Positions 29,048 through 60,595 of a stretch of 64,000 nt of DNA are shown here, piece by piece (within the stretch, counting starts at the first letter, position 1; the number at the start of each line of letters is the position of its first letter). Location: NCBI GenBank assembly GCA_041530395.1, contig CP136945.1, positions 1,798,001 to 1,862,000 on the forward strand, in the 5' to 3' direction. A program made the position numbers and the translations under genes. Source of the DNA: Thermosynechococcaceae cyanobacterium Okahandja (GTDB taxonomy: Bacteria > Cyanobacteriota > Cyanobacteriia > Thermosynechococcales > Thermosynechococcaceae). Under the pieces are notes generated by a model. The model was not told the DNA's origin and made no database searches. It was given only the letters and a program-made list of their open reading frames with translations.

Positions 29048-29576
29048 GCGGGCTTCTCCTCCGAGTTGCCCCGGATTCGCGTTTTATAGTGAGCCGATGC
29101 CCTAGGCCCACTTTCTTGATGAGTATCCCAGAGTTCACATCTCGCGGCAGAGAGGCTCCGCAGTGGGGGCAATCATGCCAGCGGTCAGAGAGTTCCTTGG
29201 GAACTCGGTTCAGACACATTGCGCAATACTGGGACGTGCCAGCCGGATTTACCTTCACAACCCGCTTACCAGCGTTCGCGGCTTTGTAAGGCAGGATATT
29301 GTTCAGGAACCCAGCTATCCCAGCATCCGCAAAACTTTTGTTCAGTCCCGACTTGGCCGCTTGACCATTGGGTAGGTACGCTCCATCCTCCCCCTGTTTT
29401 GGTTTGGCACGTCGGATCATATTGGAAACTTGCAGGTCTTCGACAAAGATAACATCAGCCTTGTCGAGTAGCTCCCCAGCGGTTTCAAAATGCCATTGCC
29501 GCCGCTGCCTAGCAATACGCTGGTGAAGTTTGGCAATTCGCTCGTTAACTAATGAGGGGTTCGGGGAGCAATAAGT

Positions 29577-29610
29577 CCCGCGCTGTAACGGTACTCTGTT
29601 CAGCATCGGG
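29577..29610 (+). repeat. Left palindrome of the nested element
   Basis: CCCG/CGGG and GCTGTAAC/GTTCAGC pair with one bulged base. It is closely similar to the right palindrome at 29898-29928 in sequence, bulge position and direction. Confidence 0.8.
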
Positions 29611-29897
29611 ATACATGGACTCCCCGCACTTGTTGATTGGGATAAAGCACTAGACTTTTTGGGGTTCAAGGTGATAAAATAGAATTGGTTCGCAGCCCAC
29701 CGATTGAGAGTGAAAGCTAGGCATTGCCGGGACCTCCAAAGTTCGGGAATTGCACAGAAATACATACTGATGTTTCTGATTTGATCAGTACCCAGGGACG
29801 CTGGGGAAGGGAAACCGCCTGTCAAGTCGTTCTGTCGGGGGTCTCTGACCTAGACAAGTGGCGTGGGGCAGGAGTGCCCAATCGTGAGGTTGGGAAT

Positions 29898-29928
29898 CCC
29901 GTGCTGTACCCGTAGGGTCAGCGTCGGG
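29898..29928 (+). repeat. Right palindrome of the nested element
   Basis: CCCG/CGGG and GCTGTACCC/GGGTCAGC pair with the same bulged A as the left palindrome. It is followed by GATGTCAC, where cleavage is expected. Confidence 0.8.
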
Positions 29929-30739
29929 AGGATGTCACGCTTGCGCCTTGCCTTTGAACCCTTGGCTCTAGCATCGCGCTTGGCCTGAAGTCGAGCCAGT
30001 TTTTCTTCGGCCTGACGGTAAACCTTAGGTGGCTGCTTTGTAGTCCCATCTGAGCAAGCGATGAAGTACTCTAGGCCAGCATCAACCCCAATACTGTTTG
30101 CCTCAGTTGGGACGACATCGGGTAGTGGCTGCTCTGGCACAGACTTATCTTCAAGCGAAAACGTCACATACCAGCCATCAGCCTTGTGTGTTACCGCCAC
30201 AGTCTTGAGGTCAAACCCCTCCGGCAGTGGTCTATGACAGATGAACTTCACAGCCCCAATCTTGGGCAGCTTCACTCGATTGCCCTCCAGCCATTCGTGA
30301 CCAGCTTGGGGGAAGGTGAACGTGCGGTAGCGACCTTTTCCTTTGAACCGAGGCTTGCCGCTACGCTTGCCGGAACTGTCGCCCTTGATGAAGCGCTCGA
30401 AGGCCAGATCGACCCGCTTCACCATGTCCTGAAGCACTTGGGAGTGGATGTCCTTGTACCAGGGCCGCTCTACCTTGAGAGGCACCAGAGATCGTTTTTG
30501 GCTGTAGTAGTCGGGCTGCTCTCCGGGTTCAGCGATACTGACCACTAGGGGGCAGGCGTTGACCGGGCAGCGGTTCATCTCCCACCAGTCAAAGCGGTCT
30601 GCCAACATCCAGTTGTACTGACAGCGCAACATTTCTAACCAACGGCTCATCAGACACCGCTGCTCATAGGTTGGCTGTAATCGATACTGGTAGGCAATTC
30701 GCATACAATCAGTGTAGCAATTTCGACCCACGCTGACCG

Positions 30740-31234
30740 ATGAAAGACGATTTTGTTTCAAGTGGCCGTTCGGTCTCAGACCTTAAGGCACACCTAGTTT
30801 TGACGACCAAGTATCGCCGCAAGGTATTCACCGCTGAAATGCTGGGGAGGTTGGTCGAAATCTTTGGCGACCTCTGCAAAAAATGGGACTGCAAGCTGAT
30901 AGAAGTCAACGGCGAGGCTGACCACATCCACATCCTGTTTCAGTACTACCCCCAGATGGCCCTGCCCAAGTTCATCAACAACTTGAAGTCTGTTTCTAGT
31001 CGCAGACTGAGAGCCGAATTTGCAGAGCGGGTCAACAAGTTCTATTGGAAGTCGGAGCTCTGGAATGAGTCGTACTTTATCGCCAGTTGTGGCGGCGTTA
31101 CCGTCTCTGTTTTGAGGCGATACATTGAACAGCAAGATTCCCCTGACTTGGGCGCTATGTCCTACGGACAGGCTGCGCCAACGAACCCCCTCAGCGCCCT
31201 TGGCTCTCATCCCGACACCCACCCTAAAGGGTAG
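30740..31234 (+). CDS. tnpA: TnpA HUH transposase (IS200/IS605)
   Basis: TnpA is the single-strand transposase of the family. The product has up to 164 residues and contains TTKYRRKVF near the start, the metal-binding HUH motif in GEADHIHILFQY (about residues 52-63), KSVSSRRLRAEF and the catalytic tyrosine in LRRYIEQQ (about 130). The last 30 or so residues are read through the left-end DNA and are not part of the conserved domain. All key residues are present, so this is the best candidate in the window for mobilising the miniature elements in trans. Confidence 0.92.
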   Translation: MKDDFVSSGRSVSDLKAHLVLTTKYRRKVFTAEMLGRLVEIFGDLCKKWDCKLIEVNGEADHIHILFQYYPQMALPKFINNLKSVSSRRLRAEFAERVNKFYWKSELWNESYFIASCGGVTVSVLRRYIEQQDSPDLGAMSYGQAAPTNPLSALGSHPDTHPKG

Positions 31235-39856: not shown

Positions 39857-40693
39857 ATGACCGATTTAGTCACTTGGCTTCAGGCCATCATTTTGGGATT
39901 GGTGCAAGGCATTACGGAGTTCTTGCCCATTAGCAGCACTGCCCATTTGATTTTGTTTAGCGATCTGTTGGGCTGGAAGGGCATTTGGCACAAGACGGCT
40001 CTCGATGCGATGCAGTTTGGTAGCGTCATTGCCGTGTTTTGGTACTTTTGGCAGGACATTCGCCACATTGCGACGGGGGCATGGCACGCATGGCGGCAAC
40101 AGGACTGGCAGCGGGAAGAGTGGAAACTCTTTGTGGGCATTAGCGTGGGCACGGTTCCGGCCTTGGTGGTGGGGTTCATTCTCAAGCAGGCCAAGGTTGA
40201 ACTGGACACGCCCCAGATTATTGCCACAATGGCAATTACGATGGCAGTTCTGCTCGGGCTAGCGGAAAAGCTGGCATCCCGCAAGCGCACCTATCAAGAC
40301 ATTGGTGTTTGGGATGGCATTCTTGTCGGCTGCGGCCAAGTGATTGCTCTGTTGCCGGGGGCTTCCCGCTCCGGCTCAACCTTAACAACGGCTCTTTTTT
40401 TAGGACTGAATCGGGAAACGGCTGCGCGTTTTTCCTTTTTACTGGGGATTCCCACCCTGACCATTGCCACCCTAGTACAGGCCAAGGATGTGTTTGACGA
40501 GGGAACCCTCGGGATTCCCCTGCTCATTGCGATTCTCTCGAGCATGATCTTTTCTTATTTGGCCATTGCTTGGTTGCTCAAGTTTCTGCAGCGGCACTCC
40601 ACGTGGGTATTTATCTGGTATCGGATTGGCTTGGGCGTGGCTCTCTGGGGGGCGATCGCCATGGGGGCGCTCCGCGGCACTAGCGCAAGATGA
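39857..40693 (+). CDS. uppP: Undecaprenyl-diphosphatase UppP/BacA
   Basis: UppP recycles the lipid carrier of peptidoglycan and polysaccharide synthesis by dephosphorylating undecaprenyl diphosphate. The 278-residue membrane protein has QGITEFLPISSTAHLILF near the N-terminus and LLPGASRSGSTLTTAL near residue 170, the two conserved catalytic boxes. The last residues and the TGA stop at 40691-40693 fall at the right end of a 268-bp miniature element, so the natural C-terminus may have been altered by its insertion. Confidence 0.95.
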   Translation: MTDLVTWLQAIILGLVQGITEFLPISSTAHLILFSDLLGWKGIWHKTALDAMQFGSVIAVFWYFWQDIRHIATGAWHAWRQQDWQREEWKLFVGISVGTVPALVVGFILKQAKVELDTPQIIATMAITMAVLLGLAEKLASRKRTYQDIGVWDGILVGCGQVIALLPGASRSGSTLTTALFLGLNRETAARFSFLLGIPTLTIATLVQAKDVFDEGTLGIPLLIAILSSMIFSYLAIAWLLKFLQRHSTWVFIWYRIGLGVALWGAIAMGALRGTSAR

Positions 40694-40957
40694 ACTACCC
40701 CACCGTATAGGCGGATGGAGTTTCTGTCTCTTCTTCTGCCCTAGTTGCTTCATCGAATTCGTATCTCCACGAGTCTCCGAAGTAGAGCTAGGACATCCAA
40801 GACTAACGAGGGTCGTTCCAACCCCCGGTCGACCCATAGGTCGACTTGCTGCTTTAGTGTAGCACATCTTTCGAGATTGACTAGAGGTTGTTCCATCATT
40901 TGGAAGAGCGGTCGCTATCCATCCCCACCGTATAGACGGTGGGGAATTCCGCGAGAA
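40690..40957 (-). mobile_element. 268-bp miniature IS605 derivative at the uppP stop codon
   Basis: On the minus strand this segment matches the element at 57.6 kb in three blocks: the left end (TTCTCGCGGAATTCC plus a CCCCACCG/CGGTGGGG hairpin at 40923-40944), the tnpA-tnpB intergenic region (TCTAGTCAATCTCGAAAGATG-like, near 40,850-40,890), and the last codons of tnpB (MKQLGQKKR, near 40,740) running into the right end GGGGTAGTTCAT. It is thus an internal-deletion derivative with no gene of its own. Confidence 0.88.
40923..40944. repeat. Left-end hairpin of the miniature element
   Basis: CCCCACCG-TATAGA-CGGTGGGG is a perfect 8-bp stem with a 6-base loop. The counterpart in the 57.6-kb element (57588-57610) has the same stem with one bulged T. 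Confidence 0.85.
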
Positions 40958-41120
40958 CCGTTTATATAAACTTAACTTTGCCTGTGGCCAAGATCACAGG
41001 AGAATCACGGATGTGCTGTCATACTGGGGTATGGGATTGTAGAAAGTAACCTTCGTTCAGCGGTGCCCTCATAAGTTCCTGATGCCCTCCTAATACACTT
41101 GGCGAGAGATTGTGTACCCT

Positions 41121-57572: not shown

Positions 57573-57587
57573 TCTTCTCGCGGAATT

Positions 57588-57610
57588 CCCCATCCGTCTA
57601 CACGGTGGGG
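57588..57610. repeat. Left-end hairpin of the 57.6-kb element
   Basis: CCCCA-(T)CCG pairs with CGG-TGGGG across a short loop. It contains the terminal part of the shifted tnpA frame and matches the left-end hairpin of the miniature element. Confidence 0.8.
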
Positions 57611-58040
57611 ATGGATAGCGACAGGGCGCAAGCTCTCCCACCGGATTGACTTTGAATATACTCTTTGACAGTCTCTAGCGGCGCACCTCCACAAGAAATG
57701 ATGCACTTAGAATCATGCCAGCGTTTTGCTTTTCCCCAATAGACTTTATCGATTTCTTCCTTGAACTGTTGCCTGAGAATTCGACTAGATGTGGATTTGA
57801 GTGACGCTATCAGATCAGAAATATTATTATCTGGGTGTAAATCAATTAGGAGTGAACATAATCCGGTCCACCATTGAACTCAACTAGAGAACTTTGATTT
57901 GCAGACAACACCCGTTCTAGGACTGGTTTCATCGCTTCAAGCATGGGTTGGGTCAGCACTTCACGCCTGTATTTTGTAACAAATACGATATGCAAGTGAA
58001 TCCTGAAAACAACGTGAGAGCCTCTTCTAAGATGAGTCAT
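57598..58040 (-). pseudogene. tnpA: tnpA with a one-base deletion and altered HUH motif
   Basis: The frame starts MTHLRRGSHVVFRIHLHIVF and reads to EFNGGPDYVHS before a stop at 57846. A one-base deletion near 57850 shifts the frame; restoring one C yields LLIDLHPDNNISDLIASLKS, YWGKAKRWHDSK and the catalytic tyrosine region ETVKEYIQSQ, closing at TAG 57598-57600. The HUH motif also reads DYVH instead of DHVH, so the first metal histidine is lost. Both changes indicate an inactive transposase. Confidence 0.85.
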
Positions 58041-58126
58041 ATCGATTTCTAGTCAGTCCCGAAAAATGTGCTATACTCATTGTAGTTGCAAATAGCGAGT
58101 CAGCACTAGGTCGAGGAAATCATCCT

Positions 58127-59482
58127 GTGGTAACGAGAAGACAGACATTTCGACTGTATCCAAACAAGGCGCAAGAAAAAGCCTTGTTTGCGGCACGTCG
58201 TTTGCACTGTTATCTCTACAATGCTTGTATCTCGCATCGTCAATTCGAGTATAAGCGCCATCGCAAGTTGATTAGCTACCTTGACCAGCAAAATCTCCTA
58301 CCCGAATTCAAGGCGGAATGGCCAGAATTTGCAATGCTGCACTCGCAAGCACTGCAATCAACAGTGAAACGAGTTGATTTGGCATACCAGTTATTCTTCA
58401 AGGGATTGCACGGTAAGCCAAAATTCAAATCGATTCGCAATTACTCAGGATGGGGGTATCCTGCAAAGTCTGGATGGAAAGTTGACAGCACTGGCAAGCA
58501 TGGAACGGTGAAGCTGAATGATTTGGGTATCACCGTCAAGATGCGCGGCAAGGCAAAACATTGGGGGACTCCAACAACCCTAACCATTGTTTACAAGCCG
58601 TCTAGGCGCCAGTGGTTTGCATCCTTCACTGTTGAGGTTGATACCCCCGCACCGAAGTTTGGCTCTGAGTCTGAACTGTCGTATCAGTCGATTGTGGCCT
58701 ATGACTTGGGGACTGAAACGGCTCTGACGTTGTTTGATGGGTCTAACTTTGAGGAAATCGAAAATCCTCGTTTCACCCATAAAAATGAAGAGCAAGTTCG
58801 CAAAGTTGCCAAACAAAAACGACGGAAACGCGCCCCAAAGAAAGGGGTCAAGGCTTCCCGTCGTTGGCGGAAAATCAACAAACGGGAATCTAATCTAAAC
58901 GCTAAGGTTGCACGTCAGCGTACAGACTGGCAACACAAAGTCACTTCAGAGATTGCACGTCGTTATGACATCGGAGTGACTGAAAAGCTGAATACGAAAG
59001 GGATGACCCGTGCTGCAAAGAAAGGAAGTCAGCGGAGGAAGCAAAAAGCAGGACTCAACAAATCGATTCTCTCGGTCGGTTTTGGGACTCTCAACAGGAT
59101 GCTCTCGTACAAGATTGAGGAGAAAGGTGGGTTGGTGTTGCAGCTTCCAACACGGGAAATCAAACCATCGCAGCGTTGTCCTAAGTGTGGAGCAATTCAC
59201 AAAGAATGGGCTGAACTTAGCAATCGTCATCACGTTTGTTCTGACTGTGGTTTTGAGATTTCTAGGGACAGGGGGTCTGCGATGGTGATGTACAAGGTTG
59301 CAACGAATCAGCAACCGGGGGTTGGAACGTCCCTCGTTAGTCTTGGATGTCTTAGCTCTACTTCAGAGACCCGTAAGCATACGGGTTCGATGAAGCAACT
59401 AGGGCAGAAGAAGAGACGGAAATCCTCTGCTACGGTGGAATCTGGGGTCTTAGAAACCCCATCTGCCTGTGCGGTGGGGTAG
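58127..59482 (+). CDS. tnpB: TnpB RNA-guided nuclease (IS605 OrfB)
   Basis: The 451-residue protein has a helical N-terminal part with VTRRQTFRLYPNKAQEKALF, RuvC-I aspartate in IVAYDLGTETALTLFDG, RuvC-II glutamate in VTEKLNTKGM, a zinc ribbon (CPKC, CSDC) and a RuvC-III aspartate in ISRDRGSAMVMYKVA. It therefore looks catalytically competent, unlike its tnpA neighbour. The start is GTG 58127. The last 60 or so residues are low-complexity and overlap the right-end/guide-RNA region; the guide would begin just after 59487, in the GTPase gene. Confidence 0.9.
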   Translation: MVTRRQTFRLYPNKAQEKALFAARRLHCYLYNACISHRQFEYKRHRKLISYLDQQNLLPEFKAEWPEFAMLHSQALQSTVKRVDLAYQLFFKGLHGKPKFKSIRNYSGWGYPAKSGWKVDSTGKHGTVKLNDLGITVKMRGKAKHWGTPTTLTIVYKPSRRQWFASFTVEVDTPAPKFGSESELSYQSIVAYDLGTETALTLFDGSNFEEIENPRFTHKNEEQVRKVAKQKRRKRAPKKGVKASRRWRKINKRESNLNAKVARQRTDWQHKVTSEIARRYDIGVTEKLNTKGMTRAAKKGSQRRKQKAGLNKSILSVGFGTLNRMLSYKIEEKGGLVLQLPTREIKPSQRCPKCGAIHKEWAELSNRHHVCSDCGFEISRDRGSAMVMYKVATNQQPGVGTSLVSLGCLSSTSETRKHTGSMKQLGQKKRRKSSATVESGVLETPSACAVG

Positions 59483-60595
59483 TTCATTAAATTTAGGTGC
59501 ATCGGTGCGCAGTTTGAGTTCACTAATTTCATTGGCAAAAATAGAGTCGAGACCGTAGCGATCGCGCTCACCACATTTGAGTAAAAGGCTGCCGTAGAAC
59601 CCCAACAAGCCGCTGGTACGATAGAGGCGATCGGGTGGCGAAGAAAAGGATTTGGCAATGGTAGTGTTGACTTTTTCCCGTAAATTGGGGTCAAACCACG
59701 TTTGGTCAATGCGGTTAATCACGTGGAACACGCGATCGCGCAGCCCGGGGTTGGCTTTAATTTTTTCAAGGAGGTCAATTTCTTCTTGAATGATTTCCCC
59801 TGAGGTGGCAATTTGATAGACCACAATCACCGCCGAGGCTTCTGGGTCGTTAATGCAACGGTAGGCTAACTCGGCGTGCTCTTTAATGGGTGCATCAATA
59901 CCGGGAGTATCAATGAGCACATTCCCTCCGGCTAAGAGGGGGTGGTGGCAGTAGTATTCAATTTTTTTGAGCACGGCACTATTAGCGCCTTGGCGGGCAT
60001 AGTTCGAGGCTTCCGCAATCGTGCCAAACCCTAGCCCATCCATGGAAAAGGAATTGTTGACAGTCGGGTGAATGCGGTCGGCATTGGCTTGATACCCCTG
60101 CAACAGGAGCTTAAGGCCGTTGGCTTCCCGTGCCCGCTGCGATCGCCCCTCTCCCCCTTCTTCTTCAATGACTTGGGTCGCCAATTGAATGGCCTTCTGG
60201 ACGGAGTTGGCATCGCCAATATCCACTCGCTGGCTAAACCGCAGGCGATCGCTAATGTCTGCCACCTGCTGTTGAATTTCGCCTTCGGTATAAAACGTCA
60301 GCACCGCCCGCTCTTGATCCGGCTCGGCGTAGGCCACCCGGCAAATGGTACCGGTGGCGTGGCCTTGGGCACTGTAGAGCAATTCCCGTTCGAGCAGGGC
60401 ATTGATCAGCATGGACTTGCCCGCGCTAAACGGCCCAGCAAAAACAATCTCAAACGTGGGTGAAATGGCCTTGCGCAGCGACATTTGTACCGGCGTACTA
60501 TCGAAGGAGCGCAAGTTAGGCTCAGCGTTGACCAATTGCAGGAGGCGATCGCAATCGGCTTGCAGGTGGGGGCAGGCGTGCAGGAGGTCGCTCAT
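59450..60595 (-). pseudogene. Dynamin-like GTPase gene truncated by an IS605 element
   Basis: The product is a dynamin-family GTPase with P-loop GPFSAGKSMLINALL at residues 54-61, G3 DTPGID at 229-234 and G4 NRID at 294-297. It ends after 381 residues, of which the last 11 are encoded by the element's right end. Family members are usually longer, with helical C-terminal domains, so the C-terminus is lost or replaced. A 31-codon frame at the far end of the element may be a severed tail. The start region is part of a 94-bp direct repeat. Confidence 0.8.

What the first reader, a model, noticed from the sequence alone, without database searches (positions are those of the whole stretch)
40690..40957. 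Miniature IS605 derivative that keeps the tnpB upstream region and right-end guide-RNA region
The 268-bp segment joins the left end, the tnpA-tnpB intergenic region and the last codons plus right end of a tnpB-bearing element whose parent is still present at 57.6-59.5 kb. In this family the guide RNA of TnpB comes from the tnpB 3' end plus the right end, followed by flanking DNA. The miniature therefore could transcribe a stand-alone guide RNA whose guide reads antisense into the end of uppP, and the parent's TnpB could use it in trans. Sequence shows the three homologous blocks; the guide-RNA role is inference.
Basis: partly seen in the sequence, partly recalled or inferred. Interest (0 to 1): 0.65.

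Follow-up and report, generated by a model that had tools for sequence, protein, structure and literature searches.

The report
Protein-less jumping element carrying guide RNA
A 270-base remnant of a jumping gene in a cyanobacterium has lost both of its proteins but still encodes a complete-looking guide RNA that matching enzymes elsewhere in the same genome could use; it is a good example of a known kind of satellite element, not a new kind of system.

Summary
The genome holds 11 tnpB copies with open frames and D-E-D residues, plus one other internal-deletion derivative. The copy at 57.6 kb is a cousin, not the direct parent: it differs at 14 of 137 guide-RNA sites. The 3' part belongs to a guide-RNA (omega-RNA) family found in 76 of 388 genomes of the class, with covarying stems and the pseudoknot reported for ISDra2 TnpB. 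The miniature keeps stem 1, pseudoknot and stems 2 and 3a intact and loses two peripheral pairs, which is not significantly better than random drift. A 34-nt deletion leaves a 137-nt scaffold; 17 of 27 sampled loci with complete tnpB have scaffolds of 121-144 nt. In a second genome (apparently Picosynechococcus PCC 7003), 7 stand-alone copies sit beside 8 tnpB-linked ones. The guide-RNA reading is thus structurally plausible; expression and use in trans are untested. Against present activity: weakened -10 box, changed target motif (TAAAC for TTAAC), single copy. A new member of a known kind (PATE-like element with an omega-RNA).

The parts
40690..40959 (-). whole 270-bp miniature element (left end at 40959, right end at 40690)
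40911..40957 (-). left-end block; hairpin CCCCACCGTCTATACGGTGGGG at 40944-40923
   Evidence: 96% identical to 57575-57622
40960..40964 (-). left flank TAAAC, outside the element (TTAAC at the left end of 10 of 10 full copies whose left end was found, and of L068)
   Evidence: homologous site in G003 reads TTAAC by my own alignment
40856..40885 (-). retained tnpB promoter block: TAGTCA (40883-40878), 16 nt, TGC then -10 TACACT (40861-40856)
   Evidence: 87% identical to 58048-58077; TAGTCA and TATACT/TATATT in 11 of 11 tnpB copies, the TG before the -10 in 7 of 11 (read by eye); relative scores 9 of 12; miniature not reported by the scan
40828..40845 (-). inverted repeat GTCGACC-TATG-GGTCGAC just upstream of the scaffold
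   Evidence: read from the sequence; no BLASTN match there in the tnpB copies or the 16 loci
40690..40826 (-). 137-nt omega-RNA (TnpB guide RNA) scaffold: stem 1, pseudoknot loop GGAAC, stems 2, 3a, 3b and right-end hairpin (stem 4), ending GUUCAU
   Evidence: 131.6 bits, E 3.2e-30
40698..40720 (-). right-end hairpin (stem 4); its loop-closing C-G is C-A here
40670..40689 (-). guide-equivalent flank CTTGCGCTAGTGCCGCGGAG, outside the element, antisense to the 3' end of uppP
57573..59487 (+). full-length relative with tnpB (58127-59482, +) and disrupted tnpA (about 57646-58010, -); its omega-RNA is 59317-59487

Best explanation
The segment is a PATE-like, non-autonomous IS200/IS605 element: a tnpB-bearing ancestor lost most of tnpA, most of tnpB and a 34-nt peripheral part of the guide-RNA scaffold by internal deletions. 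It keeps what a guide-RNA-only satellite needs: left end, the tnpB promoter block, the omega-RNA core and the right end. Shown: anatomy, homology, membership of a conserved RNA family. Inferred: it (or its full-length ancestor) was moved by TnpA into a TTAAC site next to uppP; a transcript starting near 40850 and running into uppP antisense would be loaded by resident TnpB, so that an empty TTAAC-plus-guide site (the donor after excision, or an uninserted sister chromosome) is cut and the element recopied. Today it is probably weakly expressed and partly decayed.
For: Blocks and ends. Omega-RNA model, built without the miniature, hits it at 131.6 bits. In the 15 sequences of that model 93.5% of cells pair and 8 pairs have changes on both sides, against a mean of 4.3 in shuffles (3 of 500 reach it; further pair types 25 of 500); sliding the partners by 1-3 columns drops pairing to 41-55%. 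The miniature keeps all pairs of stem 1, the pseudoknot, stem 2 and stem 3a. The GGAAC loop and 3' GUUCA match the pseudoknot of ISDra2 TnpB RNA (passages of PMC10097598). Scaffolds of 121-144 nt go with complete tnpB in 17 of 27 sampled complete-tnpB loci. Eleven resident TnpBs have open frames and carry the D, E, D residues; one of four open TnpA frames of this family keeps both HUH histidines. Genome G240 has 7 stand-alone and 8 tnpB-linked omega-RNAs; 6 of the 7 have an identified left end and measure 284-292 bp.
Against: No expression data. -10 box changed and no promoter reported by the scan. TAAAC instead of TTAAC beside the left end. One copy of this miniature in the genome; in 38 other genomes only three short partial matches. 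On the fold of the tnpB copies the miniature breaks 2 of 45 pairs (54-69 in stem 3b and 116-121 in the right-end hairpin, both C-A) where random placement of its 11 changes breaks 3.26 on average (P 0.32; 0.26 on the L065 predicted fold; 0.19 without stem 3b), so no selection on the RNA can be claimed. An earlier test gave P 0.019, and 0.06 on core pairs, but it used the miniature's own predicted fold, which is biased. 15 of 15 aligned relatives keep the stretch that the miniature lacks, so the resident TnpB may need it. Conservation of the core could date from a tnpB-bearing ancestor.
Confidence: 0.62

Rival explanations
1. Inert deletion remnant: the scaffold looks intact only because it once belonged to a tnpB element; no transcript and no use in trans.
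For: Single copy, changed -10 and target motif, broken-pair count no better than random on the tnpB copies' fold. Internal-deletion forms occur elsewhere: L068 here, L087, L088, L090, L091 (by reading), G003 copies L163 and L164.
Against: Promoter block, complete RNA core and both ends all survived the deletions; in G240 stand-alone forms of similar layout multiplied.
Confidence: 0.45
2. Plain MITE/PATE: mobility in trans by TnpA is what keeps it; the RNA is irrelevant.
For: Both ends are present and the homologous site in the nearest relative reads TTAAC. A passage of PMC3119063 cites earlier work that movement depends on tnpA alone, though its authors find this hard to reconcile with their own genomes. 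One TnpA of this family with both HUH histidines is present.
Against: A purely TnpA-dependent element needs only the ends, yet promoter block and RNA core are kept. In G240, stand-alone scaffold L198 differs from one resident tnpB copy (L207) by 11 changes with 3 double compensations on the tnpB copy's fold (random P 0.0001), though not on the stand-alone copy's own predicted fold.
Confidence: 0.3
3. Antisense RNA or transcription terminator acting on uppP.
For: The element's reading direction runs into uppP antisense and its right end supplies the uppP stop codon. The scan finds 2 terminator-like sites where shuffles give 0.5 (sd 0.6): one on the plus strand at 40709-40729, just downstream of uppP (7 pairs, 3 G-C), and one on the minus strand that is stem 1 of the omega-RNA.
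Against: The structure is that of an omega-RNA family across the class, and the sites are weak consensus matches.
Confidence: 0.07

Closest known systems
PATEs (palindrome-associated transposable elements), Haloquadratum walsbyi (PMC3119063, passages read)
   Same: No genes, near-terminal palindromes like IS605 elements, no target duplication; some arose by core deletion; one (HqIRS71) keeps part of a C-terminal coding region
   Different: The passages read do not treat guide RNAs; many copies there, one copy here
PATE-like IS605 sequence of Halanaerobium hydrogeniformans (PMC7290912, passages read)
   Same: About 271 nt: 28 nt of left end with its hairpin, last 58 nt of tnpB, whole 160-nt right end
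   Different: No tnpA sequence there, and no promoter block or guide RNA in the passages read
PATEs carrying omega-RNAs in Geobacillus stearothermophilus (Meers et al. 2023, recalled; paper not held) and stand-alone omega-RNA loci (Altae-Tran et al. 2021, recalled; not held)
   Same: As recalled: gene-less IS605 ends plus guide RNA usable by a TnpB encoded elsewhere
   Different: Could not be compared in detail here
ISDra2 TnpB omega-RNA (PMC10097598, passages read)
   Same: Stem 1, GAA/UUC pseudoknot, stems 2 and 3, stem 4 before the guide, flexible stem 3b
   Different: Different sequence and target motif (TTGAT there, TTAAC in the relatives here)

Membership tests
IS200/IS605 non-autonomous element (PATE-like) | Left and right ends with subterminal hairpins shared with an IS605-type element | tested here: met
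IS200/IS605 non-autonomous element (PATE-like) | No transposase gene | tested here: met
   Only a tnpB tail (profile 398-436) and no Y1 match inside the element
IS200/IS605 non-autonomous element (PATE-like) | Insertion 3' of a fixed short target motif | tested here: inconclusive
   Flank is TAAAC; relatives use TTAAC; the aligned site in G003 is TTAAC
IS200/IS605 non-autonomous element (PATE-like) | Mobility in trans | not testable with these tools
   single copy here; 7 stand-alone copies of a look-alike in G240
TnpB omega-RNA | Conserved scaffold fold with 3' pseudoknot directly before the guide | tested here: met
   Core helices and pseudoknot letters all pair; two peripheral pairs are C-A
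TnpB omega-RNA | Signs of selection on the fold in the miniature itself | tested here: not met
   2 of 45 pairs broken, random mean 3.26, P 0.32
TnpB omega-RNA | Transcribed and bound by TnpB | not testable with these tools
   no RNA or protein data
TnpB omega-RNA | Scaffold length of its own subfamily (168-177 nt in the 15 aligned members) | tested here: not met
   137 nt; 121-144 nt occur with complete tnpB in other relatives
RNA-guided nuclease TnpB (the supposed partner) | Open frame with RuvC D-E-D residues | tested here: met
   11 of 11 copies, alignment to ISDra2 TnpB chains

The most novel reading that the evidence does not exclude
Cyanobacteria carry satellite elements that consist of nothing but transposon ends, a promoter and a guide RNA, and that parasitise both TnpA and TnpB of resident IS605 relatives; the one here has shed a peripheral arm of the guide RNA while keeping its core.
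Probability: 0.28. Interest if true: 0.65.

Novelty: new member of a known kind. Interest (0 to 1): 0.4.

Why it matters
If the RNA is used, one 270-bp element programs a nuclease encoded elsewhere, so guide repertoires of TnpB are larger than counts of tnpB genes suggest. The genome gives a natural test: 11 TnpBs, 12 long scaffolds and one compact one. The G240 look-alikes (7 stand-alone beside 8 tnpB-linked copies) would make the question of satellite guide RNAs directly testable by RNA-seq.

Tried and rejected
Direct parentage by the 57.6-kb copy: rejected. Placing the miniature by a tree of the 137 shared sites: low support around it (0.588 and 0.759), so its ancestor stays open. Claim that the miniature's changes spare the RNA fold: first seemed significant (P 0.019), withdrawn after a test on the tnpB copies' fold (P 0.19-0.32). 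Rfam at gathering thresholds: only a tRNA in the window. Other copies of the miniature: none in the own-genome search, only short partial matches in 3 of 38 relatives, no exact match of the deletion junction or of a conserved 24-mer in viral contigs, one left-end match in plasmids. In-genome targets of the guide: 6 further places with 2 mismatches, none preceded by TTAAC. Literature: eight searches, seen as listings; PATE papers found, no listed title concerns this element; 0 papers hold Thermosynechococcus, TnpB and transposase together (the genus is my guess, no tool names the organism). Passages of PMC10278001, PMC10711439 and PMC11043419 were read for background; no term matched in PMC11870625.

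Dropped rows and limits: L062 has no left end by my pattern. L215 (35 bits) was left out of the G240 table. L259 was a wrongly typed region and left out. Of 59 sampled loci, 6 at contig edges were not classed, and L146 was moved from complete to broken after an internal stop was found. I chose the sample by hand from the listed hits; several of its loci are the same places as loci used to build the model. The model was built from 15 sequences including L086 (partial tnpB) and L087 (deletion derivative). Only two of the seven G240 stand-alone scaffolds were tested for compensations, against one tnpB copy.

Full report
What is there. The window is G000:C1:1798001-1862000 of a 2.82-Mb single-contig genome. 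No tool names the organism; the named records that encode this TnpB are cyanobacterial, and the window holds 84 copies of GCGATCGC, a motif that I recall as typical of cyanobacteria. At 40690-40959, minus strand, lies a 270-bp element with a left end, a short middle and a right end. It aligns to the tnpB-bearing copy at 57573-59487 in separate blocks. Its right end supplies the stop codon of uppP.

Copies. The genome holds 11 complete tnpB frames of this family, all 451 aa without stops, all with the aligned D, E and D residues. The ten full elements with a recognised left end are all preceded by TTAAC, as is an internal-deletion derivative at 2205558-2205902 (L068); the right ends of all 12 end in TTCAT. 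L062 has no left end by my pattern. Ten aligned full copies are 96-99% identical. The miniature differs from each of the 12 other copies at 11-14 of 137 shared sites, and from LEGE 13415 (L077) at 11 of 134, so it is an older or separate lineage. Four tnpA frames of this family are open, but three have DYVH where the fourth has DHVH; that the missing histidine is catalytic is recalled knowledge of HUH transposases.

Site. The nearest relative held (G003) has no element directly after uppP. Its sequence at the homologous position reads TATTAAC where this genome reads TATAAAC beside the left end (18 of 23 bases agree by my own reading). The simplest inference is insertion at TTAAC followed by a T-to-A change, but insertion into TAAAC cannot be excluded.

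Guide RNA. Fifteen family members, without the miniature, give a structure with covariation: stem 1 has three pairs with changes on both sides, the right-end hairpin four and stem 3a one. The stem-1 loop GGAAY and the final GUUCAU have the arrangement reported for ISDra2, where -5U to -3C pair with -103A to -105G (PMC10097598, passages). The model finds 13 loci in this genome, the miniature last at 131.6 bits and E 3.2e-30, and matches 76 of 388 genomes of the class, own genome included. The ten changes unique to the miniature are one U-G to C-G in stem 3a, six in stem 3b (unresolved in the ISDra2 structure, and removable there) and three in the right-end hairpin or its loop. On the fold of the tnpB copies two pairs become C-A: 54-69 in stem 3b and the loop-closing pair 116-121 of the right-end hairpin. 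Random placement of the same number of changes breaks 3.26 of 45 pairs on average (P 0.32; 0.26 on the L065 predicted fold; 0.19 without stem 3b). The miniature's own predicted fold has no broken pair (P 0.019; core pairs 0.06), but that choice is biased. So the core is intact, but the pattern of changes does not by itself show selection on the RNA.

The deletion. The 34-nt deletion lies between stem 2 and the right-end hairpin. All 15 aligned relatives have sequence there. In a sample of 59 loci that I chose from the listed hits, 27 have a tnpB frame from profile position 30 or less to 430 or more without an internal stop, and 17 of those 27 have scaffolds of 121-144 nt. The miniature therefore falls in the natural size range of the wider family, though not of its own subfamily.

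Promoter. The 30-bp middle block is promoter-like: TAGTCA, 16 nt, TATACT in the relative (9 of 12). TAGTCA and TATACT (one TATATT) are kept in 11 of 11 copies, the TG before the -10 in 7 of 11. The miniature has the TG but TACACT, and the scan reports no promoter in it. From this block a transcript would enter the scaffold within about 25 nt and leave through the right end into antisense uppP; this is inference.

Stand-alone guide RNAs elsewhere. Of the 59 sampled loci, 8 have no tnpB beyond the RNA overlap (L156, L157, L161, L164, L261, L262, L266, L270), 18 have partial or broken tnpB, 27 complete and 6 are cut by contig ends. Genome G240, whose third contig matches NZ_CP016476.1 of Picosynechococcus sp. 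PCC 7003 in position, has 16 model hits. Leaving out one weak hit, 8 lie at tnpB (7 open, 1 broken) and 7 stand alone. Six of the 7 have an identified left end and are 284-292 bp with different guides; in L198 the middle had no match to the one tnpB element compared (L203). All 13 elements with an identified left end follow TGAAC, 10 of them TTGAAC. Stand-alone scaffold L198 differs from tnpB copy L207 at 11 sites, 9 in pairs of the L207 fold, with no pair broken and three double compensations (P 0.0019 and 0.0001). A second one, L214, has 10 changes, 1 broken pair and two compensations (P 0.05 and 0.0045). On the fold predicted for L198 itself there are no compensations. These changes may also predate loss of tnpB.

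Judgement. Filing: a PATE-like IS605 derivative with an intact omega-RNA core. PATEs and a 271-nt PATE-like sequence are in print, and omega-RNA-bearing PATEs are, as I recall, reported by Meers et al. 2023, which is not held. What the tools cannot decide is whether this RNA is made and used. The changed -10, the changed flank, the single copy and the lack of a selection signal speak for decay; the intact core, the kept promoter block and the look-alikes speak for past or present use.

Noticed in passing
G000:C1:2205558-2205902 (L068): A second, recent internal-deletion derivative: left end joined directly to the tnpB 3' end, promoter block lost, full 171-nt scaffold kept.
   Followed up: partly
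L198, L199, L201, L204, L210, L213, L214 (G240, apparently Picosynechococcus sp. PCC 7003): Seven stand-alone guide-RNA elements, six measured at 284-292 bp with different guides, beside eight tnpB-linked copies.
   Followed up: partly
window 59450-60595, minus strand: The right end of the 57.6-kb copy supplies the last codons and stop of a gene that looks dynamin-like to me (no family search made), as the miniature does for the stop of uppP.
   Followed up: no
L187, L188, L189: Three of four full-length tnpA frames have DYVH instead of DHVH, so perhaps only one TnpA of this family (L186) is active.
   Followed up: no
window 29100-30509 (minus) and 30770-31135 (plus): Another IS200/IS605-like element of a different family with tnpB matches in two pieces and an open tnpA.
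   Followed up: no
L163, L164 (G003, same genus): Same-genus genome has related omega-RNA loci with internally deleted or missing tnpB; its other TnpB matches are only about 23-38% identical, apart from a few short ones.
   Followed up: partly
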